Positions 9,760 to 23,146 of a stretch of 64,000 bases of DNA are shown here, in pieces. This DNA comes from Secundilactobacillus folii (GTDB lineage: Bacteria; Bacillota; Bacilli; Lactobacillales; Lactobacillaceae): contig NZ_WNJO01000005.1 of assembly GCF_009720675.1 (NCBI RefSeq), forward strand, positions 124,001 through 188,000, in the 5' to 3' direction. A program made the translations under genes and the position numbers. Each line of letters opens with the position of its first letter. Position 1 is the first letter of the stretch. Under the pieces are notes generated by a model. That model made no database searches. It was not told the DNA's origin and was given only the letters and a program-made list of their open reading frames with translations.

Positions 9760-9806
9760 ATAGGTATTGAAATTTGTCCCGTTATGACAAGGAAGGTGTG
9801 AAACGA

Positions 9807-11357
9807 TTGGCTAAAGTGGACTTATCTGCTTTTGATAAAATTATTGTGCTGGACTTTGGGTCCCAGTACAATCAACTGATTACCCGTCGAATTCGTGATC
9901 TCGGGGTCTACTCAGAGTTAATGGCTCATACGATCTCAGCTGCGGAAGTTAAAGCCCTAGCACCAAAGGGAATCATCTTTTCGGGTGGCCCGAACTCCGT
10001 TTATGCTAAAGATGCGCTGAAAGTTGATCCGGAGATTTTTAAGCTGGGGATTCCGATCCTGGGCATTTGCTACGGGATGCAACTAATGGCTTATGACCTC
10101 GGTGGCCAAGTGAAGTCTGATAATGGTCAGTATGGTCGGGCGGAAATCACAGTTACCAGTGATGGTGCCAAGCTATTTGCCGGTACACCAAAGAAGCAAA
10201 ACGTTTGGATGAGCCATGGGGACCTCGTCACCGAAGTTCCTGAAGGTTTCACTGCGGTTGCAACGAGTGCTGAATGTCCAATTTCTGCGATGCAGGATTT
10301 AAGCAGAGGGTTCTACGGCATTCAATTTCACGCTGAAGTTCGGAACACGGACTACGGCAACGAAATTTTAAAGCACTTTGCCTTCGATGTTTGCCATGCC
10401 GAAGCGAACTGGTCGATGGATGATTTTATTGACCTGCAAATTAAGCATATTCAAGAAACTGTTGGTGATAAAAAGGTGCTGCTCGGTCTTTCAGGTGGCG
10501 TTGATTCATCTGTTGTTGGGGTGCTGCTACACAAAGCCATTGGTAATCAACTGACTTCTATTTTTGTTGACCACGGTCTGCTACGGAAGGGCGAAGCTGA
10601 ACAGGTCATGGCTAGCCTCAAAGGTAAGTTTGGTCTGAACATTATCGAAGTGAATGCGGCCGACCGTTTCTTATCAAAACTGAAGGGCGTCAGTGAACCT
10701 GAAAAGAAGCGTAAGATCATCGGCGCGGAGTTCATCAACGTTTTCAATGACGAAGCCAAGAAACTCGAGGGAATCGACTTTTTGGCTCAGGGTACCCTGT
10801 ACACCGACGTTGTTGAGAGTGGTACCGATACGGCGCAGACGATCAAGTCCCATCATAACGTGGGTGGATTACCAGAAGATATGCATTTTCAACTGATTGA
10901 ACCTTTACGAACTTTATTTAAGGATGAGGCGCGTGAACTGGGTGAAAAGTTAGGCATGCCATCTGACCTGGTTTGGCGTCAGCCGTTCCCAGGCCCAGGC
11001 CTAGGTATTCGGGTGCTAGGTGAGATCACACCAGAAAAGCTCCAAATTGTGCGCGACAGTGATTTTATTTTACGTGATGAAATCAAAAAAGCTGGCCTAG
11101 ATCGTAAAATCTGGCAGTACTTCACGGTGTTACCAGGAACCCGTTCTGTCGGCGTGATGGGTGACGGCCGGACTTATGACTACACCGTTGGTATTCGCGC
11201 CGTGACTTCCATTGATGGGATGACGGCAGACTTTGCTCACATTCCGTATGAAGTTCTTGCGAAGATTTCGACGCGTATCGTAAACGAAGTCGATCATGTT
11301 AATCGGATCGTGTATGATGTTACGAGTAAGCCGCCTTCGACTATTGAGTGGGAGTAA
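9807..11357 (+). CDS. guaA: GMP synthase (glutamine-hydrolysing)
   Basis: Converts XMP to GMP with ATP and glutamine. The N-terminal class I amidotransferase domain has its nucleophile in GICYGMQ (Cys near residue 90) and a His-Glu pair in QFHAEV. The ATP-pyrophosphatase domain has the P-loop LSGGVDSS near 228, and the C-terminal dimerisation domain ends in the conserved KPPSTIEWE. The start TTG 9807 is chosen over the in-frame TTG 9774 because AGGAAGG (9790-9796) lies upstream and the resulting 516 residues match the family, beginning [20 protein letters not shown]. Its last codons form the left attachment site of a genomic island; the coding sequence remains intact. Confidence 0.96.
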
Positions 11358-11359: not shown

Positions 11360-11641
11360 GGTATCTGTTAATTAAACCCGGAATGTTGATTTAACGGCAT
11401 TTTCGGGAGATACAAAGGATACGGTTGGCGGGGGATTTGTTACGTTCCCCGCCAAAATCCCCGCCAAGTTTGGGCCGAATGAGGGCTGAGTTGGCGGGGA
11501 TATTTTGTAAATATGATGCGATTTGAAAGGCACTACTTTTACATTCTGAAATATCATATAATGAGCATTGATTGGATTGCGACCAGATATTGCTACGAGT
11601 GTTGGGTGGATTTTTTTAGAGAGAGTATTCGGGGATTTCTT

Positions 11642-12316
11642 ATGGCAAACGATAATGGTGGTTCAATTGCTCAGAAGGGATTCACCTATCAAAGTCGCGG
11701 TTATATCGTTGGTTGCAATTCGGAATTATCAGAAGCTGGGGTTTTAAATCTTTGTAGAGGCAGATGACGATTTTGAGACTGTTTCCGACAATGATTATCA
11801 TGCGTACATTCAGGTTAAGGACCATAAAAAAAGTGATTCTTAATACTCTATTGAGAAAATTAGCTGGTAAGCAGTCGATTTTTGAGAAGGATCTCGGCGC
11901 CGGCGAAAATAATGCATTAAATAAAATTGTATTCTATAATTTTTCGGACAAAGATTTCAACCTGATGCAAGAAATCGATGCTGACGAGATTTTTTAGCAA
12001 AGCTTATTTGTTTGGAAAAGAACAGATAGCAATGATAAGTATTTATCGCTCTCGGATACTTTCTTTAATAAAGACTGATTTTACTTTTGATTTTGTTGCG
12101 GCTACCAAGTACTTAATCGGGGAAATGGCGTCTGAAGGTATTTCTGTTGATAAGAAAGCACAAATTGCCCAAGGCGAACTTTGGCAACTGATTTTGCAAA
12201 AGTTGGAAAAGGAAATTCAGCGTAGCTAAGGTCGTGAGCTAAAGAAAATCAGTGTGAACGATCTAATGCCAATTTTTGAAAAAGTCGCTGCACTAGAATG
12301 TTACGATGAAATTTAA
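11642..12316 (+). pseudogene. Decayed Cap4/DUF4297-like dsDNA nuclease (ABC-3C-type effector)
   Basis: Open segments in shifting frames assemble into one protein. It begins MANDNGGSIAQKGFTYQ, then DDDFETVSDNDYHAYIQVKD, SIFEKDLGAGENNALNKIV and a helical C-terminal part ending KVAALECYDEI. The D...IQVK pattern resembles the catalytic core of the restriction-endonuclease-like DUF4297/dsDNA nuclease family found as effectors in CBASS (Cap4) and in ABC-three-component systems. At least three frame changes or stops interrupt it, so it cannot be made. Family assignment is from remembered motif resemblance and is moderate. Confidence 0.5.
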
Positions 12317-12579
12317 AGTGAATTTGGTTTTCGTCTGTTTAGAAATAAAAAATTAAGCTAGAGAAGTCCAAGATTATTTTACTGTATACCAGTAAAAAAG
12401 CAGTCGCTTTGAAATGGTTTTGCAAATGTGACCTAGATAATATTAATGAAGTAGATTTGATTCGAGATTATTTGGCCAAAGGTCTTTGATGTGGCTTAAA
12501 TGAAAATAATGTATATGCAATTTGTATTTCGGCCTACTGTGACGTATTAGGAGGGCTTGACCTTGAAGCTAGTTATTAA
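12317..12579 (+). pseudogene. Decayed small protein between nuclease and ATPase (putative ABC-3C middle component)
   Basis: A readable stretch runs LYTSKKAVALKWFCKCDLDN then INEVDLIRDYLAKGL, is broken by one TGA, and continues CGLNENNVYAICISAY to a stop at 12577-12579, overlapping the ATPase start. Size, position and tight coupling to a downstream ABC ATPase fit the middle component of ABC-three-component systems, but I cannot place it in a family from sequence alone. Its 5' part (about 12317-12370) has lost an obvious start. Confidence 0.4.
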
Positions 12580-14255
12580 GCATATCGTGATTATCAATTC
12601 AGAGCACGTACTTGCGAATAAATTTGAGTTTGGCGAATTATCGAACATATTCCTTAGTGATGATAACGAAGTTGACAAGTCAAGCTTACTAAAGTCGATC
12701 TGTTTTACTTTAGGTGGAGACGACAGACCATTTACCTCAGGCTGGGACTATCAACATCATGTTTTTCAAATCGAACGTGATATTCATGGACAGTCATTGA
12801 CAATTCAGAGATTTAATAAAGTTTTTTGACGAAAAGTGCAATGAATATTTATTCTTTTACAAATAAAAAGAATTTTTCAATTTGACTTCAAAACAAAATT
12901 GGGATGAATCTAAAGCTTCAGACAAAGTCCTTAGACAAATATCATACCGGTAGAATGAACGTTGTGCTAGTACCCTTCAATATTGATCAAGATCAGTCAT
13001 TGGCTTCATTCCGTGAGGACTCGTTTGACAACGTGACCATGTATAAAGACCAAACGAAGTCAATTTTTGAATATTATCTTAAACTTTCAAGCAATCAACT
13101 GATTGCAATAGAGGAACAGCTAAAAGCGCTGATTAACAGAACAAAGAGGTTGATGGCCAACTTCGTCAGGTGGAGGGTGTAAGGAAATCGTATAGCAGCG
13201 AAGTAAAAACGGATGTTATGAGCCCAAAAGAGTTTGATGAACTCAAGGCGCGGAACTAGATTATCACGATGCAATTACAAATGATTAGCTGACCGAAATA
13301 TCTTCCTATTCTAGCCAGATATCAAGTAAAAAGATGAAACTGTACTGTTATCGTGCGCGATTACCCGGAAATCCATAAATTACTATTAGTTACTAACACA
13401 CGATTCCGAAACATTGAGTATGAATGCACATATTGACATTCTCGGTTAACCAGAGAACAGTCGTTAACTAGACTTGAACTTGATGATAATGACTTCGAAA
13501 TTGGACAACGCGAGATAGAGGTAAAGCAAGATATAGAAGTTGATCAGGCTAAGTTTAACAGTCTGTTGTCGGCGTTAGCTAGTTTGTAGTCTGACTTCGA
13601 TGAAAAGAACAGACGAATTGGCAACCTCGGAAATGCCAGTAATATAGATAAGTATGTCGATCATTAAGTAATAACGAAACTTGGTTAGCTCGCAGGAAAG
13701 TATCAGGCAACATTAAGTCGTCTGGAAGCGTCGATACATGAAATACAAAAAGATCAGTACGAGAAACGTGCGACTTTTAGAGCTGCTCGCAAGAGTAATG
13801 AAATGAATTATGAACAGATTAAAAATGGTATTGCCAATGAACTTGGGGTACCAAGCGTGTCTAACAAACTGTTTTTAAATTTAAGAAGGTGAAGGACGCA
13901 GGTACGGCTCTAAATAAGCTCCTGTTGTCTCATATTTAACGTATTTTGAAATCATGGCAGCCTGCTCAAATACAACCTTTCCTATGGCGATGGATTCGGT
14001 TGAAAAAATGAAATTATTGATTCGAACGCAGATAAAATGTTTATGGCTGTTTAAAAACACTTTATGAGTCTCAATAACCAAAATTTCTTCTCAATTGATT
14101 AAACGAAATCAGAATAAATTAGACTTGACTAACAGGCATGTCACGCTTCTCAAAAGGCCAATATTAAAGGATAGTGCGTACGAACGTTTGGGTCCAGAAT
14201 TAATAGTTGCAGAAGACAATCCGGATGGTAACGTCGGTAACGAAAGGAGATTAGA
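12563..14255 (+). pseudogene. Decayed coiled-coil ABC ATPase with CxxC hook (SMC/Rad50-like, ABC-3C type)
   Basis: Starts at TTG 12563 behind GGAGGG. The first 85 codons are intact and begin MKLVIKHIVIINSEHVL, but the Walker A reads DDNEVDKSSLLKSI, where GxxGK is expected: single G-to-A changes would give both lost glycines. A fragment with the Q-loop-like SFDNVTMYKDQ follows, then broken helical sequence with a zinc-hook-like ECTYxHSRLTREQ (second Cys now TGA, 13434-13436). Further coiled-coil segments follow, and near 13950-14090 a C-terminal ATPase region with the NTTFPMAMDS strand (Walker B-like). Many stops and frameshifts make it a clear pseudogene. Its end is uncertain and abuts the restriction-modification operon. 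Confidence 0.6.
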
Positions 14256-14260
14256 ATGCA

Positions 14261-15166
14261 ATGACAGAGCAAGACGAAACATGGTCGGAAGACATTTCAG
14301 AGACTCTCATTCGTGAGCGTATGCCCGAAATACTCGATATTTTACTGATAGACCGGACAAAATCAACCGCCAGAAAGATTCAGAATATCATCTGGGCAAA
14401 TGATAATTACATGCAGTTTGGAGTTAAAGCATACGCTCCAGAAGCGTCGATAAAGCCGGAATTGGTCACTGGTGTAATGGATAGCATTATCATGCCACGT
14501 GCATTAAAACCCAGTGAGCTGCAAAAGGAGAGAACCAAAGCAAAAGCTGAAGTTTTTACACCAACATGGATTGTTAAGAAGCAGAATGATACCGTTGATG
14601 AAAACTATGTGAGTGATGATCTTGAAACTTATACAAATCGGACGTGGTTAGAGATTACTTGTGGTGAAGCACCATACATGGTTAGTCGTTACGATATGGA
14701 CACTGGTGATGGAATTCCTTTGTCTGATCGGGTTGGATTTGTTGATCGTAAACTTCGTCGAATCAGCGCTGAAGTCAATGACCAAGCGACGTGGCAAACA
14801 CTTGTTGAAGCTGCATACAAGGCAAGCTATGGCTTTGAATGGAGCGGAGATTCATTGCTCCTAGCCCGCGAGAACTTACTTTACACGTATCGAGATTATT
14901 TCATGGCGAAGTGGCGTGTTGAGCCAGACACCGAACAACTGAAGACTATTGCAGAGATTATTAGCTTTAATGTTTTTCAGATGGATGGTTTGAAGTTTGT
15001 GGTACCACTCAGCGAAACTCGGGTAAAGGTTGTCCAACAGGAAATTTCGTTATTCGATGATCCAGCTGATGTCCAAGAAGAGTGGATCACAAAGCCGGGA
15101 AAGCGGGTCAAGGTTATGAATTGGGCTAAGAATAAGATGGAATTCTTTGATAAAGGGGTCGCATGA
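14261..15166 (+). CDS. Restriction-modification protein, methyltransferase-like 'subunit M'
   Basis: A 301-residue protein of a family usually annotated restriction endonuclease subunit M. It contains a motif X-like AEVFTPTWIVKKQN near residue 100, the family signature WLEITCGEAPYMVSRYD near 130-147 (a possible AdoMet-binding motif I equivalent), VGFVDRKLRRIS, and YGFEWSGDSLLLARENLL near 195, resembling motif III. No NPPY/F motif IV occurs, so it is not a complete N6-adenine methyltransferase alone. ATG 14261 has AAAGGAGA 10 nt upstream; the nearer ATG 14256 is out of frame and stops at once. It overlaps the promoter-proximal end of an operon with the helicase gene 1 bp downstream and is intact despite decay on both sides. 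Confidence 0.8.
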   Translation: MTEQDETWSEDISETLIRERMPEILDILLIDRTKSTARKIQNIIWANDNYMQFGVKAYAPEASIKPELVTGVMDSIIMPRALKPSELQKERTKAKAEVFTPTWIVKKQNDTVDENYVSDDLETYTNRTWLEITCGEAPYMVSRYDMDTGDGIPLSDRVGFVDRKLRRISAEVNDQATWQTLVEAAYKASYGFEWSGDSLLLARENLLYTYRDYFMAKWRVEPDTEQLKTIAEIISFNVFQMDGLKFVVPLSETRVKVVQQEISLFDDPADVQEEWITKPGKRVKVMNWAKNKMEFFDKGVA

Positions 15167-15167
15167 T

Positions 15168-18100
15168 ATGGTTGACAAAACTAAAATAAAAACTACAAGA
15201 GTGGTTTATCCGCAGATTTATGCGTATACGTTACCACAGATAGCCGAAGACAACGGCTGGATTAAGATTGGCTACACTGAGCGCGAAGATGTTGATACTC
15301 GCATTCGTGAACAAACGCATACTGCGGCAATTCGACTGAATGCAAATAAACTTTGGTCTGAGCCGGCCAAGTATTCAAGAGGCGATGCTTGGTTCACTGA
15401 CAAGAAGTTACATAAATACCTAACTTCACAAAAAGACGTTAAACAGCGGTTGAATACTGAATGGTTCTACTACGATGGGACGCCTGAACGCGCACATGAA
15501 GATTTTGTAGACTTTCGAGATCGCAAATCTGATCAGTCTAGAGACACTTCTGAGTATACATTACGAGCTGAACAGCAAGCAGCTGTTGAAAAGACTGTTG
15601 CCTATGCTAGAAATCATGTTGGTGGGGAATTTCTATGGAATGCGAAGCCGCGTTTTGGTAAGACGCTGACAACGTATGACTTGGCCCGAAAATTAAATGC
15701 TGAAACTGTGCTGGTTGTGACCAACCGTCCGGCAATTGCCAATTCATGGTTCGATGACTTCGAAAAATTTATTGCATGGCAAACCGACTATGCCTTTGTT
15801 TCTACGACTGATTCACTTAAAGATCGTCCCTCTATGAGTCGCGAAGAGTTTATGAATCAGCTAGATGGTGGCAAACAGCGAATGATTGCCTTTATCTCGT
15901 TACAAGATATCAAGGGGGCAATTCCTTTTGGTGGCGGCGTTAAAAAGCTGAAATGGGTTAAGAATTTGCATTGGGATTTGTTGGTTATTGATGAATCTCA
16001 TGAAGGTGCAGATACCTTAAAGGCCGACGTTGCATTTGACAATATCAATCGTGATTTCACGTTGAATTTATCTGGTACACCATTCAAAGCTGTTGCCAAG
16101 GGCACATTCAGCGACGATCAAATCTTCAACTGGACATACGCTGATGAGCAAAACGCTAAAGAAAACTGGCCGGTGGATGATGAAGAACATAATCCATATC
16201 GGAAATTGCCACGGCTGAACCTATTTTCATATCAAATGAGTCGAATGATTACCGATGAAGTCGATGCAGGCGCTCAAATCGATGGTAAAGATGAAGACTA
16301 TGCCTTTGATCTTAATGAATTTTTCTTGACAAGTAATTCTGGTAAATTTATTCATGAAGATGATGTCCGTAAGTGGTTACGTAGTCTTTGGAAAAATGAC
16401 GGCTATCCATTTTCAAATGACGAACTGCGTTACGAATTAAAACATACGTTCTGGATTCTCAATCGGGTGGCCAGTGCTAAGGCACTTGAAAAGCTAATTA
16501 AAAGCATGCCTGTTTTTGATGGTTACGAAGTGGTCATTGCCGCTGGTGATGGTCGTACAGATGATGATCAAGTTCAAAACGTGCGGTCCCTGGATCGAGT
16601 TCGCAAAGCCATTGCGGAAAATGACAGGACAATCACACTGTCTGTTGGTCAACTGACTACTGGGGTTACGGTTCCGGAATGGACTGGCGTTTTAATGTTG
16701 TCGAATATGAAGTCGCCCAGTTTATACATGCAGGCCGCGTTCCGTTCGCAAAATCCTTGGACATATACCGAGAATGGTATCCGTAAGGAAAAGGCTAATG
16801 CTTACGTGTTCGACTTTGCCCCAGAACGAACGCTGACCATCTATGATGATTTCGCCAATGATTTGTCAAGTGAAACCACAAATGGCGGCGGGACAACCGA
16901 AAAGCGCAAAGATAACCTTAAAACGTTGCTGAACTTCTTCCCAGTTATTGCAGAAGATACTGACGGTAAGATGGTTGAGCTTGATGTTAACCAAGTGCTG
17001 ACAATTCCAAAGAGCATCAAAGCTAAGGAAGTCGTCAAGCGCGGGTTCATGTCCAATCTTCTGTTCCAAAATATCGGTGCCATCTTTGCTTCCAATGAAG
17101 TACGTGAAATCTTAGAGCAAATGCCGGCTGTTCCTGAAGGCAAGACTGTTCCTAATCAAAATGCTGATCCAATCGATACCAAGAACGTTAAGGTGGATGA
17201 TCAAGGTAATGCGATGGTTGAACCAGCGACAGTCGACACGGCTGTTGAGCATCACTTCGGCAAAAAAATTTATGCTGAAGTCGAATCAGCTGCTGAGAAT
17301 ATTAATATTGATGACAGTTCACGTATTGAAAAAAATATTGCTGACGCATTCCGTGCGCAGACGCTTGATAGTATGAAGAACCTAGCCAAAGATAGCGGAT
17401 TGACCAATAAGGCCGCTGAAGCGGTCACAAATCAAGGTGCAAATGTAATTGCCCGTGAAGTTGAGAAGGTTCAAAAGCAAGCTGAAGTCAAGGTGAATGA
17501 AGCACAAGTTGAGTATCAAACTAAGGTTAAAGAGGCTGAACGCAACACCTCAATGGAGGACGCAGCAAAGCGTCAATTTGCGGAGGTGGCTAAACGTGAA
17601 CTGGAACAAAAAAATCAGCAGATTCAAGAAGACTTTCAGAAGAATGTGACGGCGACCATCGTTGATAAATCAAAAGAGGTCATTCAGTCGTCAACGGAGA
17701 CATTGCTTAAGAAGGCTGAAGATAAGAAGAAGAACATTGTCGAAGATGATATTCGTTCTCGGCTTCGTGGGTTTGCTAGGACGATTCCGTCATTCTTGAT
17801 GGCTTATGGTAGTGTCGACACAACGCTTGGCAATTTTGACGCCACAATCAGTGATGGGGTTTTCCAAGAAGTTACTGGAATTACGCTGGACCAGTTTCGT
17901 AAACTTCGCGATGAGTTCCAATTCTTTGATTCTATTGTTTTCAATGAGTCTTGCTTGGAGTTTTTGCGTAAGCGGGTTGAACTGGCAAATTACTTTGACG
18001 ATACGCATGACGAAGACATTTTTGACTATATCCCGCCGCAAAAGACTAACCAAATCTTCACGCCTAAAAAAGTCGTTAAAATGATGATTGATAAGCTGGA

Positions 18101-18452
18101 AGAAGAAACGCCGGGTATTTTCGAAAATCCAGATAAGACTTTTGCTGATTTATATATTAAATCAGGGCTTTATCTAACGGAAATTGTTAAGCGCTTGTAT
18201 ACTGGGTTGGCTGATAAAATTCCTGATGAAGATGCACGCATCAAGCATATCTTGGAGCACCAAGTTTACGGGTTTGCACCATCCGAGATCATTTACAACA
18301 TCGCGCGAAACTTTATCTTTGGTTTTGATGCCAGTGCAAAGAATATTGACGATTCGCACATTGTTTGCCTTGATACCATGCCTTATGCGATGGACAACGG
18401 AGACTTTGAAACTAAGTGTGAAGAGTTATTTGGAAAGGAGAACAAGCGATGA
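15168..18452 (+). CDS. GIY-YIG nuclease-SF2 helicase-partial adenine methyltransferase fusion (restriction-modification)
   Basis: A 1094-residue multidomain protein. Residues 15-105 are a T5orf172/GIY-YIG-type nuclease domain (YAYTLPQ, GWIKIGYTE, R45, EWFYYDG). Residues 130-600 are a superfamily 2 helicase/translocase with motif I NAKPRFGKTLT (159-169), motif II VIDESHEG (273-280) and motif VI-like MQAAFRSQNPW. Residues about 690-890 are long charged helices likely to be coiled coil. The C-terminal 150 residues carry methyltransferase motif X (NQIFTPKKVVKMM), a motif I variant (FADLYIKSGLYLTEIV) and VYGFAPSEIIYNIARNF, but no motif IV. That motif starts the next gene, which overlaps by ATGA. 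ATG 15168 follows the preceding stop by 1 nt. It would cut DNA after translocation, as in type I/ISP enzymes. Confidence 0.85.
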   Translation: MVDKTKIKTTRVVYPQIYAYTLPQIAEDNGWIKIGYTEREDVDTRIREQTHTAAIRLNANKLWSEPAKYSRGDAWFTDKKLHKYLTSQKDVKQRLNTEWFYYDGTPERAHEDFVDFRDRKSDQSRDTSEYTLRAEQQAAVEKTVAYARNHVGGEFLWNAKPRFGKTLTTYDLARKLNAETVLVVTNRPAIANSWFDDFEKFIAWQTDYAFVSTTDSLKDRPSMSREEFMNQLDGGKQRMIAFISLQDIKGAIPFGGGVKKLKWVKNLHWDLLVIDESHEGADTLKADVAFDNINRDFTLNLSGTPFKAVAKGTFSDDQIFNWTYADEQNAKENWPVDDEEHNPYRKLPRLNLFSYQMSRMITDEVDAGAQIDGKDEDYAFDLNEFFLTSNSGKFIHEDDVRKWLRSLWKNDGYPFSNDELRYELKHTFWILNRVASAKALEKLIKSMPVFDGYEVVIAAGDGRTDDDQVQNVRSLDRVRKAIAENDRTITLSVGQLTTGVTVPEWTGVLMLSNMKSPSLYMQAAFRSQNPWTYTENGIRKEKANAYVFDFAPERTLTIYDDFANDLSSETTNGGGTTEKRKDNLKTLLNFFPVIAEDTDGKMVELDVNQVLTIPKSIKAKEVVKRGFMSNLLFQNIGAIFASNEVREILEQMPAVPEGKTVPNQNADPIDTKNVKVDDQGNAMVEPATVDTAVEHHFGKKIYAEVESAAENINIDDSSRIEKNIADAFRAQTLDSMKNLAKDSGLTNKAAEAVTNQGANVIAREVEKVQKQAEVKVNEAQVEYQTKVKEAERNTSMEDAAKRQFAEVAKRELEQKNQQIQEDFQKNVTATIVDKSKEVIQSSTETLLKKAEDKKKNIVEDDIRSRLRGFARTIPSFLMAYGSVDTTLGNFDATISDGVFQEVTGITLDQFRKLRDEFQFFDSIVFNESCLEFLRKRVELANYFDDTHDEDIFDYIPPQKTNQIFTPKKVVKMMIDKLEEETPGIFENPDKTFADLYIKSGLYLTEIVKRLYTGLADKIPDEDARIKHILEHQVYGFAPSEIIYNIARNFIFGFDASAKNIDDSHIVCLDTMPYAMDNGDFETKCEELFGKENKR

Positions 18453-19468
18453 AATTCGACGTTGTAGTGGGTAACCCTCCTTTTGAGAAAACGTTAGAAG
18501 GGACTAGTGACGCACCGATATACAATTACTTTTACGATCTTGCAAGTGTAATTGGTAAAAAGTATTGTTTAATATCACCAGCACGTTTTTTGTTCAACAC
18601 AGGAGGGACCTCAAAAGCATGGAATGAAAAGATGCTTAATGATCCGCATATCCAGGTTGAATATTACAATCCGGAAGCCACTGACGTATTCAGGGATACT
18701 GGGTTTAAGGGTGGTGTAGCTGTTCTATACCGAGATGAGTCCAAAGAATTGGGGCCAATAGGTACATTCACGAAATTTCCGTTATTAAACGAAATTCTGT
18801 CAAAAGTAACTCGTTCCGATACTTTCGAGAGCATTATCCCGATGGTTACTCTACAAGAAAAATTTGATCTCAAAAAGCTATACACCGATTATCCGCAAAT
18901 GGAGTCATTAATTGGTAGTAAAGGCAAAGAAAAAAGATTGACAACTTCCATTTTCAGTACTGTCCCTTCGCTTTTTAATGATTACTATAGCAGTGATTGT
19001 GATGTTGAAATATTGGGACTGATTAATAATAAGCGAGTTTATAAGTTTATCAATGGTAAATATATCGCTAAACATGAGAACCTAAACTCGTGGAAGGTTA
19101 TCCTTCCAAAATCCAATGGCACTGGATTGTTCGGGGAAAGGCTATCCAGTCCAATTGTTGGTAGACCTGGCTTGGGACATACGCAGAGTTTTATATCTTT
19201 CGGTAAATTTAACAGCAGTGCTGAGGCTAATAACTTGCTGAAGTATCTTAAGAGTAAATTTTGTCGAGCACTGTTAGGCGCAATTAAGAGTACTCAGGAT
19301 AACAATCCGGCAACGTGGGCCAAAGTCCCTGTTCAGGATTTTTCTAATGATTCAAACATTGATTGGAACAAGCCGGTATCTGACATTGATCATCAACTTT
19401 ACATGCTGTATAGACTCAATCGGGCAGAGATTGATTTTATCGAATCCAAGGTAAAACCAATGAACTGA
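18449..19468 (+). CDS. Adenine-specific methyltransferase motif IV/target-recognition subunit (Eco57I-like)
   Basis: A 339-residue protein starting MKFDVVVGNPPFEK: the N6-adenine methyltransferase motif IV (NPPF) is at residues 9-12, followed by YCLISPARFLFNTGG (motif V/VI-like). The C-terminal half (about 180-339) is likely the target recognition domain, ending in IDHQLYMLYRLNRAEIDFIE. Motifs X, I and II are absent and are instead at the C-terminus of the preceding helicase, so one methyltransferase appears divided between two chains. AAAGGAG lies 8 nt upstream of ATG 18449 and the start overlaps the previous stop by 4 bp, so it is translated separately rather than by frameshifting. Confidence 0.82.
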   Translation: MKFDVVVGNPPFEKTLEGTSDAPIYNYFYDLASVIGKKYCLISPARFLFNTGGTSKAWNEKMLNDPHIQVEYYNPEATDVFRDTGFKGGVAVLYRDESKELGPIGTFTKFPLLNEILSKVTRSDTFESIIPMVTLQEKFDLKKLYTDYPQMESLIGSKGKEKRLTTSIFSTVPSLFNDYYSSDCDVEILGLINNKRVYKFINGKYIAKHENLNSWKVILPKSNGTGLFGERLSSPIVGRPGLGHTQSFISFGKFNSSAEANNLLKYLKSKFCRALLGAIKSTQDNNPATWAKVPVQDFSNDSNIDWNKPVSDIDHQLYMLYRLNRAEIDFIESKVKPMN

Positions 19469-19767: not shown

Positions 19768-21010
19768 ATGCTGAAGGATTTGAACATAGTCAGCGGGATA
19801 ATGAACACCGACTGGCTAAACCAGTTTTGCGCTGAGATGCGCACGCACAAGATTACTCAGGACCAATTAGATTACAGTCGGTCGCATCTGAACCAGTTGC
19901 TGACGGGAATAAGCCGGTTAACCAACAGGCGCGGCTACGGTTAACGTTGGCGCTGCGGTCGCTGACAGGTCAGACCAACATTGACGTATGTACTGATTAT
20001 TTTGGCGTCATCTTCAAATCGCACGACTATGAAGAGCTGGTGACGGAGCTGTTCCAGATTAATCTCAATCACTTTAATCTTAAAGAAGGGTGCGCGCTAT
20101 GGTCACCCAGCCACTTTTAAATGTGTTGAAATCGACGTGTTATTGTCGATTTATCAAGATGTGGATGCAGACGGATATGATCCTAGTAAGGATGGCGGCA
20201 CGATGATTGAGTTGAAAGGTTAAGGCTGTCGCTACGTTGAAGCGTATTTGCGCCAGCAGAACCGCACCTGGTAAGACTTCTTGGAGACTTGCATCACACT
20301 TGACGGTCACTTCACACGCGTTGACCTCGCCTTCAATGATCGTAATGGCTTGCTCGATGTGTCGACCTTAATTGAGAAGTGTGACCGCGATGGATTTATC
20401 TCGCACTTTCACGGCTTCCGGGATAATCACACGAAGCAATGGGAGGTATCGGGCAGAACCTTATATCTGGCGTCGCCGCAAAGTGAGGTGTACTTCTGTA
20501 TTTACGACAAGGCCTTTGAGCACACCAGATACACCCTGAGATTGCGATTAAAGACCAACCGATTGAAGTTCGGTTACGTTGCAAACGCGCTGTTTCCGCA
20601 ATTAAGAATCTGTTGGCGGAACGTGATCCAGAGAAAGTTGTATTCGGAATCATCAATCCTTACCTTCGTTTCTTGATGCCGAGCCACAAGGCAAAAGTCA
20701 GTGGACGACAGATCCACGTTGGGATGCCTTCATTGGTAATAATCGCGACAAGCTGCGATTATCGACCAATTCTGAACCATTGAGTTATGCACACATTACC
20801 CGCTTCCTGAAGAAGCTGTTGCTGAAGATATTGCAGCTGATTGATCAATACAATGGCACCACCGAGTTGAAGGCGATTATTGACGGTAGTAAGTTGGCGA
20901 GCCACTGGGACTTGATCCATCACTATCAGCACCATCGCAATGGCTTTTTGACGGATTCAGAACCGAGTGAGACATCAAAAAAGAGCAACTACGCCGACCA
21001 AAGCAAGTAG
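19768..21010 (+). pseudogene. Broken MobT/Rep_trans-family relaxase (Tn916 Orf20-like)
   Basis: Fragments in several frames follow the order of the family. They are an N-terminal helix-turn-helix (ITQDQLDYSRSHLNQLLTG), the initiator domain (KCVEIDVLLSIYQD, GCRYVEAYLRQQNRTW, FTRVDLAFNDRNGLLD, SEVYFCIYDKAFEH) and a C-terminal helical piece (YAHITRFLKKLLLKI to 21010). The pattern TRVDLAxxD plus EVYFCIYxK is characteristic of PF02486 replication initiation/MobT proteins that nick the transfer origin of Tn916-type elements. At least five stops or frameshifts (for example TAA 19941-19943) inactivate it. ATG 19768 keeps a good ribosome binding site. Confidence 0.7.
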
Positions 21011-21087
21011 TCACCCTTCACAGATAAGATTTGGGTCCTATCTGGTTTGATTATCTCATCTCAATCAAAGATATGGAAGTTACGTAA

Positions 21088-21249
21088 TTGGAAAATAGTT
21101 TTGTCTGCTATCAAGATCTGATGGCATTAGGATTTAAGCAGCATACTGCGCACGATATCATTAGACAAGCGAAGCAAAGGCTGGTACAAAAGGGTTATCC
21201 CTTGTATCTCGACCGAAGCTTAGGGTGCGTGCCGCGGTCAGTCTTTTAG
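21088..21249 (+). pseudogene. Truncated DUF3173 excisionase-like protein
   Basis: From TTG 21088 the frame reads ENSFVCYQDLMALGFKQHTA, then HDIIRQAKQRLVQKGYPLY and LDRSLGCVPRSVF before TAG at 21247-21249. Removing the TAG would extend it through SILGSPMNGVVENE to 21284. The YQDLMxxGF..HxxxxIIRQAK pattern is that of the small DUF3173 proteins located before integrases in Tn916-like elements. It directly precedes the integrase relic. Confidence 0.65.
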
Positions 21250-22571
21250 TCCATTCTCGGATCACCGATGAATGGAGTTGTTGAGAATGAGTAAAACAAA
21301 ATATCCAGGCGTGTTCATAGATGCCAAATGAAACTTCTACTATGAAACCGAGTTGGGCACCGGTAAGATGAGTGTCAAGCGCGTTCGCAAGGACAGTCAA
21401 GGAATGCCATTCAGTACTGCGCTCGCGGCGAACAAGGAAGTGACGCGAGTGAAGCGTGAATATCATGAGGCACATGGGTTTACGAACTTCCGGATGGCCT
21501 ATCGCCAGTTCATGAAGGACGCGTATATCCCCGCGTACAAAACCAACGTGGAGGAAAGTACCTTCGTCCTACGTAATTGCAGCTTCGAGATTTGTATTGC
21601 GCGGTTTGGCGACCAGCTGTTGCATGACATTGAAATCTCTGACGTGCAAAATTTTAGCACATGACTGCTCACGGATGAGACAGATGACGGTGCCGACTTG
21701 GTATTTGGCTGCTTCCGCAAGTCACCCGACCACGCGGTGCAGATGCAGTATCCGTCCAGCAATGTGTCAAAGCGGGTCAAGGTGATTCCTAAGGTTAAGA
21801 GTAGCGTACCGTTCTGGACGAAAGCTGAGTTTGAACAAGCCATCGCGCAAATCTGTATTGATGATATCTACGGACACCTGAACTTTGTAATGTTGTGGCT
21901 GTACTTCCTGACTGGCGTTCGCGTCAACGAAGGCACGGCGCTGTGGTGGGCGGGACGCTGATCTCGCTAAGAAGCAGTTGCAAGTTGACCACATACTAGT
22001 GATGAGGAACCGGCATGACTGGGAACGCCAAGACTACACGAAGACAGAAAGTGGTAAGCGGATCTTGATGCTGGACGATGACACTGTGGCGATTCTGCGG
22101 CGTTAGCGTGAGGTACAGACGAGTTTCGGTCTGGGTGGAGTTGATTATTTCATCATGACTTACGACGGATTGCCGATGACCTAGTCCACAATCTCGCGAA
22201 TTATTCACCGATATGCCAAGTTGGCGAAGGTTCATCTAGTCTCGAGGGCAAAGGACTGCGGCCACAGTCACGCATCGTATCTCATCAATGAGTTCAATGT
22301 TTCTGTGCTGGTGTTGTCTAAGCGCTTGGGGCACTTGTCGCCAGAGATCACGCTGAAGCACTACTCGCACTTGTGGGGCGGGCTGGATGCTGACATCGCC
22401 GAACAGATTGCGCGCAACATCACGATCGAGACGGCGGGGCAGAATCAGGTGTGGTTCGTGGGGAATCAGGCGGTAAAGTTCAATAAATTAAGCCCAGCTA
22501 ACTCCCCGCCAAAACGGCAGCCGAGGCATAGAAAGCCAGTAGTGACGCAGGTTGTTAAGCAGAAGGTACGT

Positions 22572-22587
22572 TTGAATGGGAGTAAAA
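22572..22587 (+). repeat. attR: right boundary repeat of guaA island
   Basis: TTGAATGGGAGTAAAA, matching attL at 11344-11359 with one mismatch. Confidence 0.8.
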
Positions 22588-22620
22588 AATTTCGCTCGGT
22601 AAATTTAAATTGTTATTTCG

Positions 22621-22644
22621 AAGTCCCGTTTTTCGGGACTTTTT
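22621..22644 (+). terminator. Terminator, probably the original guaA terminator displaced by the island
   Basis: Perfect 8-bp stem AAGTCCCG/CGGGACTT (22621-22628, 22634-22641), T5 loop, T-tract to 22644. It lies 34 bp beyond attR, where the native guaA 3' region should resume. Confidence 0.8.
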
Positions 22645-22789
22645 ATGTGGGAAAAATTTATAGCGAATGTGGTATGCAGGGGATATCTATGTAAAAATTT
22701 TTTATTTTGAGAATCTCCGCGGTTTTCAGAAGTGAATAAATTATATCATTTATTATTTGAGAGCCTTAATTTATAGGGAAATGATTAGT

Positions 22790-22878
22790 GTATTCCCCGC
22801 GTCTGCGGGGGTGATCCTCCGCGAACCATTTATCACCGTTTGGGATCAACGTATTCCTCGCGTATGTGGGAGTAATCC
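22790..22878 (+). CRISPR. Collapsed type I-E CRISPR array: two repeats, one spacer
   Basis: Repeat 1 is 22790-22817 (28 nt, GTATTCCCC...GGGGTGATCC), spacer 22818-22850 (33 nt), repeat 2 is 22851-22878 (28 nt, five substitutions). The 28/33/28 geometry and the repeat with its internal palindrome (CCCCGC..GCGGGG) match lactobacillus type I-E arrays. An AT-rich segment before repeat 1 (about 22690-22789) could be the leader; the degenerate repeat 2 fits the trailer end. No cas gene is visible on either side, so the array is orphaned. Confidence 0.75.
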
Positions 22879-22933
22879 TTGTATGGGTACACTGTATTTA
22901 TTAGTATGTGTCTCACACAGATGGGCTTTGATT

Positions 22934-23146
22934 ATGATCACCATTTATCAAAGGCCCGATGTTTTCTCAGAACAACTGGCACGGCAAGTGATCCAACACT
23001 TCATTTCAAAAAAGCCCCTCTCGACTGTACCAGATAACGCACTTGAGAAAACGTTAACTGGCGGTATAAATAACGATTGGTTTGCAGAAAAAGATAGGCC
23101 TATTATTTCTCGCGTGCTGCGCTTGTATGGTACTGTGAAAGACTAA
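22934..23146 (+). CDS. Small hypothetical protein or remnant
   Basis: A 70-residue frame starting MITIYQRPDVFSEQLARQV and ending RVLRLYGTVKD. Codon use looks protein-like, but no clear ribosome binding site precedes ATG 22934 and I do not recognise a family. It lies just after the CRISPR relic and could be the C-terminal part of a longer lost gene. The following strong hairpin at 23237-23280 could end its transcript. Confidence 0.35.
   Translation: MITIYQRPDVFSEQLARQVIQHFISKKPLSTVPDNALEKTLTGGINNDWFAEKDRPIISRVLRLYGTVKD

What the first reader, a model, noticed from the sequence alone, without database searches (positions are those of the whole stretch)
14261..19468. Three-gene restriction-modification operon with an adenine methyltransferase split across polypeptides
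Seen: protein 1 has a motif X-like segment and ITCGEAPY but no motif IV. Protein 2 fuses a GIY-YIG domain, SF2 helicase, coiled coil and a methyltransferase N-terminal half (motif X, motif I variant, motif II/III-like). Protein 3 opens with NPPF (motif IV) and ends in a probable target recognition domain. The split lies exactly at an ATGA overlap with a strong own ribosome binding site. Type ISP enzymes keep nuclease, translocase, methylase and TRD in one chain and use a PD-(D/E)xK nuclease. Here the order is similar, but with GIY-YIG and three chains. I do not know a biochemical description of this arrangement.
Basis: partly seen in the sequence, partly recalled or inferred. Interest (0 to 1): 0.75.

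Follow-up and report, generated by a model that had tools for sequence, protein, structure and literature searches.

The report
Split-methylase restriction system with swappable specificity
This is an intact three-gene bacterial operon that most likely marks its own DNA and cuts foreign DNA; it belongs to a little-studied known family, and its DNA-recognition half is a separate gene that relatives swap or join to either of two partner proteins.

Summary
Three intact, overlapping genes encode P1 (methyltransferase N-lobe without motif IV), P2 (GIY-YIG nuclease, SF2 translocase, coiled-coil-like stretch, second methyltransferase N-lobe) and P3 (NPPF catalytic lobe plus target-recognition domain). 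The split is not a recent frameshift. In 103 related loci P3 is fused to P1 (38), free before P2 (24), free after P2 (19), fused to P2 (15), or other/incomplete (7).

A natural P1/P3 fusion is predicted alike. P1 keeps the AdoMet acids (94 of 94); the P2 lobe has lost the motif II acid (0 of 98).

The architecture is not undescribed: DrdVI (plasmid pDrdVI) and MaeIV are cloned 'split methylase' systems. I read the window as a DrdVI-like variant whose M2 is cut in two, its N-lobe carried on the nuclease-translocase. P3 behaves as a specificity cassette: in 43 of 61 locus pairs with P2 at least 80% identical, P3 is below 60% identical; P1 never is.

Verdict: new variant of a known kind. Open question: does one P3 serve both lobes?

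The parts
14261..15166 (+). P1: methyltransferase N-lobe (motif X EVFTP, motif I LEITCGEAPY, motif II acid E193, motif III QMDGL), no motif IV; M1-like subunit, long form
15168..18452 (+). P2: GIY-YIG nuclease (about residues 15-130), SF2 translocase (137-690), low-conservation charged stretch (700-868), methyltransferase N-lobe MTN (956-1085); residue numbers count from the TTG at 15147; likely start ATG 15168
18449..19468 (+). P3: methyltransferase catalytic lobe (DVVVGNPPF) and target-recognition domain; exchangeable specificity cassette
18432..18452 (+). translational coupling site: GGAAAGGAG Shine-Dalgarno-like sequence and ATGA stop/start overlap between P2 and P3
   Evidence: read directly
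14291..18474 (+). stretch 92.6% identical to L. plantarum plasmid NZ_CP058734; the match stops about 26 bases into P3, although that plasmid has a P3 gene of its own there
   Evidence: P3 annotated downstream; P1 92, P2 94, P3 31%

Best explanation
An ATP-dependent restriction-modification system of the DrdVI 'split methylase' kind. P2 and P3 together correspond to M2.DrdVI plus the DrdVI restriction subunit: the M2 N-lobe is carried at the C-terminus of the GIY-YIG nuclease-translocase, and the M2 catalytic lobe plus target-recognition domain is a free polypeptide (P3) that docks onto it. P1 corresponds to M1.DrdVI, an AdoMet-type N-lobe. The complex recognises one asymmetric site through P3 and methylates one adenine. 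If the site is unmethylated, the SF2 motor translocates DNA and the GIY-YIG domain cuts. Replacing the P3 gene changes the specificity of both activities at once. Shown by tools: gene anatomy, intact motifs, predicted composite fold in homologues' natural fusions, homology of the parts to DrdVI, P3 exchange. Inferred: docking between the window's own chains, AdoMet in P1, m6A on one strand, translocation-coupled cleavage, phage defence.
For: Plasmid pDrdVI encodes M1-like (212 aa), MTN-P3 (539 aa) and GIY-helicase (859 aa by ORF) homologues of P1, P2-C/P3 and the rest of P2. M1-2.DrdVI is listed as 6mA, IIG, GCAGCC, cloned and expressed in E. coli. M1-M2.MaeIV, cloned together, methylates GCACY, a one-strand motif. 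[quoted passage not shown] trehalosi counterpart as carrying a GIY-YIG domain. The MTN/P3 natural fusion of L045 is predicted as one methyltransferase, best match CamA over model residues 83-546 (Z 21.2, rmsd 6.1, 397 aligned). In 21 loci with free P3 and long P1, P3's catalytic lobe covaries with MTN (partial r 0.29, 0 of 1000 permutations) and not with P1 (-0.15, 892 of 1000). P3 exchange: 43 of 61 pairs.
Against: P1/P3 fusions (38 of 103 loci) and their equally complete predicted fold (pLDDT 88.8, pTM 0.84) show that P3 can also pair with P1. In 33 such fusions P3 covaries weakly with P1 (0.14, 43 of 1000; the GIY domain gives the same, 0.14, 46 of 1000) and not with MTN (-0.02). In 13 loci with short P1 there is no P3-MTN signal (-0.01, 865 of 2000) and only a weak P3-P1 one (0.22, 120 of 2000). 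MTN lacks the motif II acid (0 of 98; Ala in 96), so MTN/P3 may not bind AdoMet by the usual contacts. No credible sequence relative is in the PDB. The three window chains were not modelled together, and no activity is known for this operon.
Confidence: 0.6

Rival explanations
1. Lobe exchange: P1 and the P2 C-terminal lobe compete for the same edge of P3. P1/P3 is the modification enzyme; P2/P3 is the recognition module of the nuclease-translocase. One specificity subunit is shared between self-marking and attack.
For: Both fusions exist (P1-P3 38, P2-P3 15 of 103) and one natural fusion of each kind is predicted as a complete fold matching CamA. Both cores align to METTL5 across the junction (Z 16.1, 3.7 A, 192 aligned; Z 14.6, 3.1 A, 181 aligned). 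P1 and MTN are homologous. The AdoMet acids are kept in P1 (E131 and E193 in 94 of 94) and the motif II acid is lost in MTN (0 of 98). Covariation of P3 goes with MTN in free-P3 and P2-fused loci and, weakly, with P1 in P1-fused loci.
Against: AF2 may complete a familiar fold from either lobe; no negative control and no three-chain model was run. With P3 fused to one partner, the other must displace it in cis. An M1-like then M2-like order in one broken B. trehalosi gene would suit a joint complex as well.
Confidence: 0.2
2. P1 and P3 are the methyltransferase; MTN is a degenerate docking domain with no role in methylation.
For: P1 motif acids are conserved; MTN has Lys in motif I and Ala at the motif II acid; P1-P3 fusions are the commonest arrangement in this sample.
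Against: MTN is highly conserved, not decaying; P3 covaries with MTN in free-P3 loci; M2.DrdVI is MTN fused directly to NPPY.
Confidence: 0.2
3. P2-C/P3 alone is the active methyltransferase, exactly; P1 is an accessory or regulatory subunit.
For: Complete predicted fold, covariation, Pfam N6_Mtase across the junction.
Against: Motif II acid absent in 98 of 98 MTN; loci where no P1 was seen end or are cut near the operon or carry P1 across the record origin, except L103, which stays unresolved; M1 and M2 were cloned together for MaeIV and are listed together for DrdVI.
Confidence: 0.15
4. The operon is a broken single-chain enzyme and the split is damage.
For: P2-P3 fused relatives at about 62-64% identity exist.
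Against: The split state is shared by 14 of 27 rows of the window's supported clade, among them Lacticaseibacillus, Aerococcus, Staphylococcus, Psychrobacter and Caviibacterium; the free P3 carries its own start and Shine-Dalgarno-like sequence.
Confidence: 0.03

Closest known systems
DrdVI of Deinococcus wulumuqiensis 479 (M1.DrdVI, M2.DrdVI, DrdVI), PMC6430315
   Same: Same three functional parts and homologous proteins: M1 N-lobe, M2 with KSG motif I, NPPY and TRD, GIY-YIG plus SF2 translocase
   Different: M2 is one chain and separate from the nuclease-translocase; short-form M1; gene order M1, M2, R
MaeIV of Methanococcus aeolicus (M1-M2.MaeIV, GCACY), PMC10113651
   Same: [quoted passage not shown] one-strand m6A
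   Different: Archaeal; its gene sequences were not examined here
Type ISP enzymes LlaGI / LlaBIII
   Same: Order nuclease, SF2 translocase, adenine methyltransferase, TRD; the MTN/P3 model aligns to them (Z 18.4 and 18.1)
   Different: Single chain with a PD-(D/E)xK nuclease (recalled); here GIY-YIG, three chains and a second N-lobe
OspHL35III-type IIG-like systems (PMC4752239, S4 Fig legend)
   Same: GIY-YIG nuclease, translocase and methyltransferase/TRD on separate proteins
   Different: MmeI-like methyltransferase in one chain; nuclease and translocase separate
Type I HsdS (comparison recalled)
   Same: An exchangeable subunit sets the specificity of modification and restriction together (works like)
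   Different: P3 carries the catalytic NPPF lobe as well as the TRD; homology to HsdS was not tested

Membership tests
DrdVI-like split-methylase R-M | separate M1 N-lobe with AdoMet motifs and no motif IV | tested here: met
   P1 aligns to M1.DrdVI (23.7% over P1 residues 89-244, E 2.7e-6); no NPPY-like motif in 57 of 57 separate P1
DrdVI-like split-methylase R-M | M2 with K-S-G motif I, NPPY and TRD | tested here: met
   both halves homologous to M2.DrdVI (P2 C-terminus 29.4%, 6.3e-15; P3 29.5%, 1.5e-27), but on two chains in the window
DrdVI-like split-methylase R-M | GIY-YIG endonuclease fused to SF2 translocase | tested here: met
DrdVI-like split-methylase R-M | one-strand m6A at an asymmetric site | not testable with these tools
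   needs SMRT or nanopore data
Type ISP | single polypeptide | tested here: not met
   three ORFs; no locus of 103 carries P1, P2 and P3 in one chain
Type ISP | PD-(D/E)xK (Mrr-type) nuclease | tested here: not met
   the N-terminus is a T5orf172/GIY-YIG domain with invariant catalytic-type residues; defining feature recalled
Type ISP | translocase, then m6A methyltransferase, then TRD in N-to-C order | tested here: met
   across P2 and P3; in one chain in the 15 P2-P3 fusions
BREX | BrxX plus brx gene neighbourhood | not tested
   the MTN/P3 model aligns to BrxX (Z 17.5) but no brx gene search was made

The most novel reading that the evidence does not exclude
One catalytic/target-recognition lobe (P3) is shared by exchange between two homologous N-lobes: the AdoMet-binding P1 (self-marking) and the AdoMet-less C-terminus of the nuclease-translocase P2 (attack). 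The specificity of both arms is then set by a single exchangeable gene, and the modify-or-cut choice would be a partner swap inside a Rossmann fold.
Probability: 0.2. Interest if true: 0.8.

Novelty: new variant of a known kind. Interest (0 to 1): 0.52.

Why it matters
That makes two questions directly testable: which lobe holds AdoMet, and how modification and restriction share one target-recognition subunit. The exchangeable P3 could also help to predict or engineer specificity.

Tried and rejected
Type ISP membership: tested and not met (single chain, nuclease type). Recent frameshift: rejected on the tree. A claim that P1 and MTN touch: the partial value for P1-MTN (0.27) is no higher than for two helicase segments (0.28, 0.31), so it is not specific and I dropped it. 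Sequence relatives in the PDB: none credible. NCBIfam: no match. Direct repeats bounding the island at guaA: no clear pair. In one search a narrow NPPY pattern missed 14 of 92 rows; a plain pattern gives 34 NPPY, 2 NPPF, 1 NPAY and 3 without among 40 free P3 (L029, L075, L088; for L075 and L088, tblastn finds the N-terminus upstream of the listed ORF start), 37 of 37 in P1-P3 and 15 of 15 in P2-P3. The 38th P1-P3 locus, L094, has a broken P3. In the helicase tree 89 of 103 loci were used: 3 duplicates, 3 of another N-terminal type and 8 that missed the trimming pattern were left out. In the exchange count 88 of 103 loci had all three parts, and pairs were prefiltered by shared 4-mers before the 80% cut. 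The covariation tests were not corrected for multiplicity. The text pattern for P1 motif II missed 3 of 76 long forms; the alignment shows the acid in all. The rivals differ on lobe use, not on family, so the odds overlap. Paper searches that found no description of alternative P3 fusions or lobe exchange: (open-licence library; of most listed papers I saw the listing only).
Full report
Anatomy. Three ORFs lie head to tail: P1 14261-15166, P2 to 18452, P3 18449-19468. P2 is listed from TTG 15147, but ATG 15168 with AAAGGGG upstream fits the starts of L014-L016. P2 and P3 share ATGA (18449-18452), with GGAAAGGAG just upstream. Pfam gives ResIII and T5orf172 (a GIY-YIG family, recalled) in P2 and Eco57I in P3. 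PADLOC gives MTase_II for P1 (5e-77) and P3 (1.9e-30) and REase_MTase_IIG for P2 (1.8e-17). The names of the methyltransferase motifs (X, I to IV), and the role of the motif II acid in holding the ribose of AdoMet, are recalled and come from no call.

Conservation. In 98 P2 sequences (the window's own and a few identical copies included), Y25, K40, I41, G42, R52 and E105 of the GIY-YIG domain and D282, E283 of the DEAH-like box are invariant. The C-terminal lobe of P2 (called MTN here) reads D-L-Y-x-K-S-G at motif I, and at the motif II acid it has Ala in 96, Ser in 1 and Val in 1 of 98. P1, by contrast, keeps EVFTP and both acids: E131 (motif I) and E193 (motif II) in 76 of 76 long forms and 18 of 18 short forms. 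P1 and MTN are homologous (hhalign probability 95.5, E 1.4e-8), and YGFE of P1 is aligned with YGFA of MTN.

Relatives. tblastn finds 83 plasmid records with a P2 relative, 32 of them with one place covering at least 80% of it, 17 with a P1 relative and 11 phage records, one of which covers at least 80%. Of 100 genomes searched, 12 have a match at E 0.001, the window's own included and one of them marginal (5.3e-4). In 103 loci (three pairs identical in all three proteins, and one locus the window itself) the arrangement is: P1-P3 fused 38, P3 before P2 24 (5 of these with no P1 found), P3 after P2 19, P2-P3 fused 15, other 5, incomplete 2. On a quick helicase tree of 89 rows the window sits in a starred set of 27 rows, 14 with P3 free after P2 and 13 with P2-P3 fused; over six labels the tree needs 19 changes of arrangement. 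The window's split is therefore old and shared, not a frameshift of this strain.

Structures. I could run two predictions, single chains only, and chose natural fusions of homologues. The P2-C/P3 fusion (L045 C-terminus, 562 aa, 62 rows) gives pLDDT 91.0 and pTM 0.85. The P1/P3 fusion (L066, 632 aa, 75 rows) gives pLDDT 88.8 and pTM 0.84, with the linker at 248-271 under 50. Both match the CamA adenine methyltransferase along most of the chain (Foldseek 1.3e-15 and 1.0e-13, query TM-scores only about 0.4-0.5; VIA Z 21.2 with rmsd 6.1 over 397 residues, and Z 19.9 with rmsd 6.0 over 421). Both also match the small METTL5 core across the lobe junction (Z 16.1, 3.7 A, 192 residues; Z 14.6, 3.1 A, 181 residues). 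So either N-lobe can, in prediction, complete the fold with P3. I had no coordinates or error matrix, no negative control and no model of the window's own three chains, and AF2 may complete a familiar fold too readily.

Which lobe? Distances of P3's catalytic lobe were compared with each part of P2 and with P1, the other parts held constant. In 21 loci with free P3 and long P1 it follows MTN (0.29, 0 of 1000 permutations) and not P1 (-0.15, 892). In 13 P2-P3 fusions it follows MTN (0.29, 21 of 1000). In 33 P1-P3 fusions it follows P1 weakly (0.14, 43 of 1000), no more than the GIY domain (0.14, 46), and not MTN (-0.02). Against this, in 13 loci with short P1, tested with the helicase alone held constant, there is no link to MTN (-0.01, 865 of 2000) and a weak one to P1 (0.22, 120 of 2000).

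P3 as a cassette. Window DNA is 92.6% identical to L. plantarum plasmid NZ_CP058734 from 14291 to 18474; the match then stops, at the start of P3, although that plasmid has an annotated P3 gene there. P1 is 92%, P2 94% and P3 31% identical. Of 61 locus pairs with P2 at least 80% identical (three of them identical copies; the pairs are not independent, many being Streptococcus), 43 have P3 below 60% and none has P1 below 60%. In some pairs mainly the middle (recognition) part differs, for example L063/L090 with 67, 36 and 83% for start, middle and end; in others the whole P3 differs, for example the window and L024 with 35, 23 and 41%. In 67 long-P1 loci P1 distances follow P2 (r 0.76-0.88) while P3's catalytic lobe hardly does (0.14-0.27).

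Known relatives. Plasmid pDrdVI encodes P1-, MTN/P3- and GIY-helicase homologues on three genes. [quoted passage not shown] coli. [quoted passage not shown] trehalosi counterpart contains a GIY-YIG domain, and describes a frameshifted or multi-ORF B. trehalosi gene similar to M1 and then M2. [quoted passage not shown] PMC4752239 (passages) describes other IIG-like systems with separate GIY-YIG and translocase proteins. PMC12707154 (passages) added nothing on this architecture. So the kind is known. The M2 cut with its N-lobe on the motor, and the two alternative fusions of P3, I did not find described in the searches.

Verdict. A DrdVI-like split-methylase R-M variant, intact and probably functional. 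Function, site and strand remain untested.

Noticed in passing
window 11360-14100: Stretch full of stop codons with short ORF remnants between guaA (9774-11357, Pfam GMP synthase domains) and the operon; the R-M genes are the intact part of a decayed stretch.
   Followed up: partly
window 20281-23146: Downstream of the operon: a fragment matching Rep_trans (replication initiation factor, 61.3 bits) and broken pieces that look like a tyrosine integrase by eye (no credible Pfam match), suggesting a decayed integrative element beside guaA.
   Followed up: partly
L103 3687-6007: A Methanosphaera MAG has two tandem P3 copies, both interrupted, before an intact P2; no P1 was found with 12 P1-type queries at most or among its upstream ORFs. 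Possibly a cassette store, or decay.
   Followed up: partly
L088 1931-3511: Three extra genes lie between P1 and P3: two small ones that look like a nucleotidyltransferase/HEPN pair (by eye) and a 278-aa protein.
   Followed up: no
L067: Another break point: P1 short form, then GIY-helicase (705 aa), then MTN-P3 (684 aa), close to the DrdVI division of labour.
   Followed up: no
L022, L023, L030: A distinct group in which no GIY domain was detected, helicase and P3 are in one chain, and a P1 lies next to it; in L022 and L030 the N-lobe reads NSKTGLY, again with Lys in motif I.
   Followed up: no
L063 and L090: Two loci titled Streptococcus pneumoniae have P1 97% and P2 98% identical but P3 56%, with the difference centred on the middle (recognition) part: a likely specificity change within one species name.
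   Followed up: partly
L028 1-9371: On Enterococcus faecalis plasmid pL8 a P2-P3 fused member lies next to annotated resistance genes (optrA, ant(9)-Ia, erm(A)); described only.
   Followed up: no
L069 6-812 and 5980-9270: A P3-type stretch lies about 5 kb upstream of P2 in a Streptococcus locus, so the operon appears to be interrupted by other DNA.
   Followed up: no
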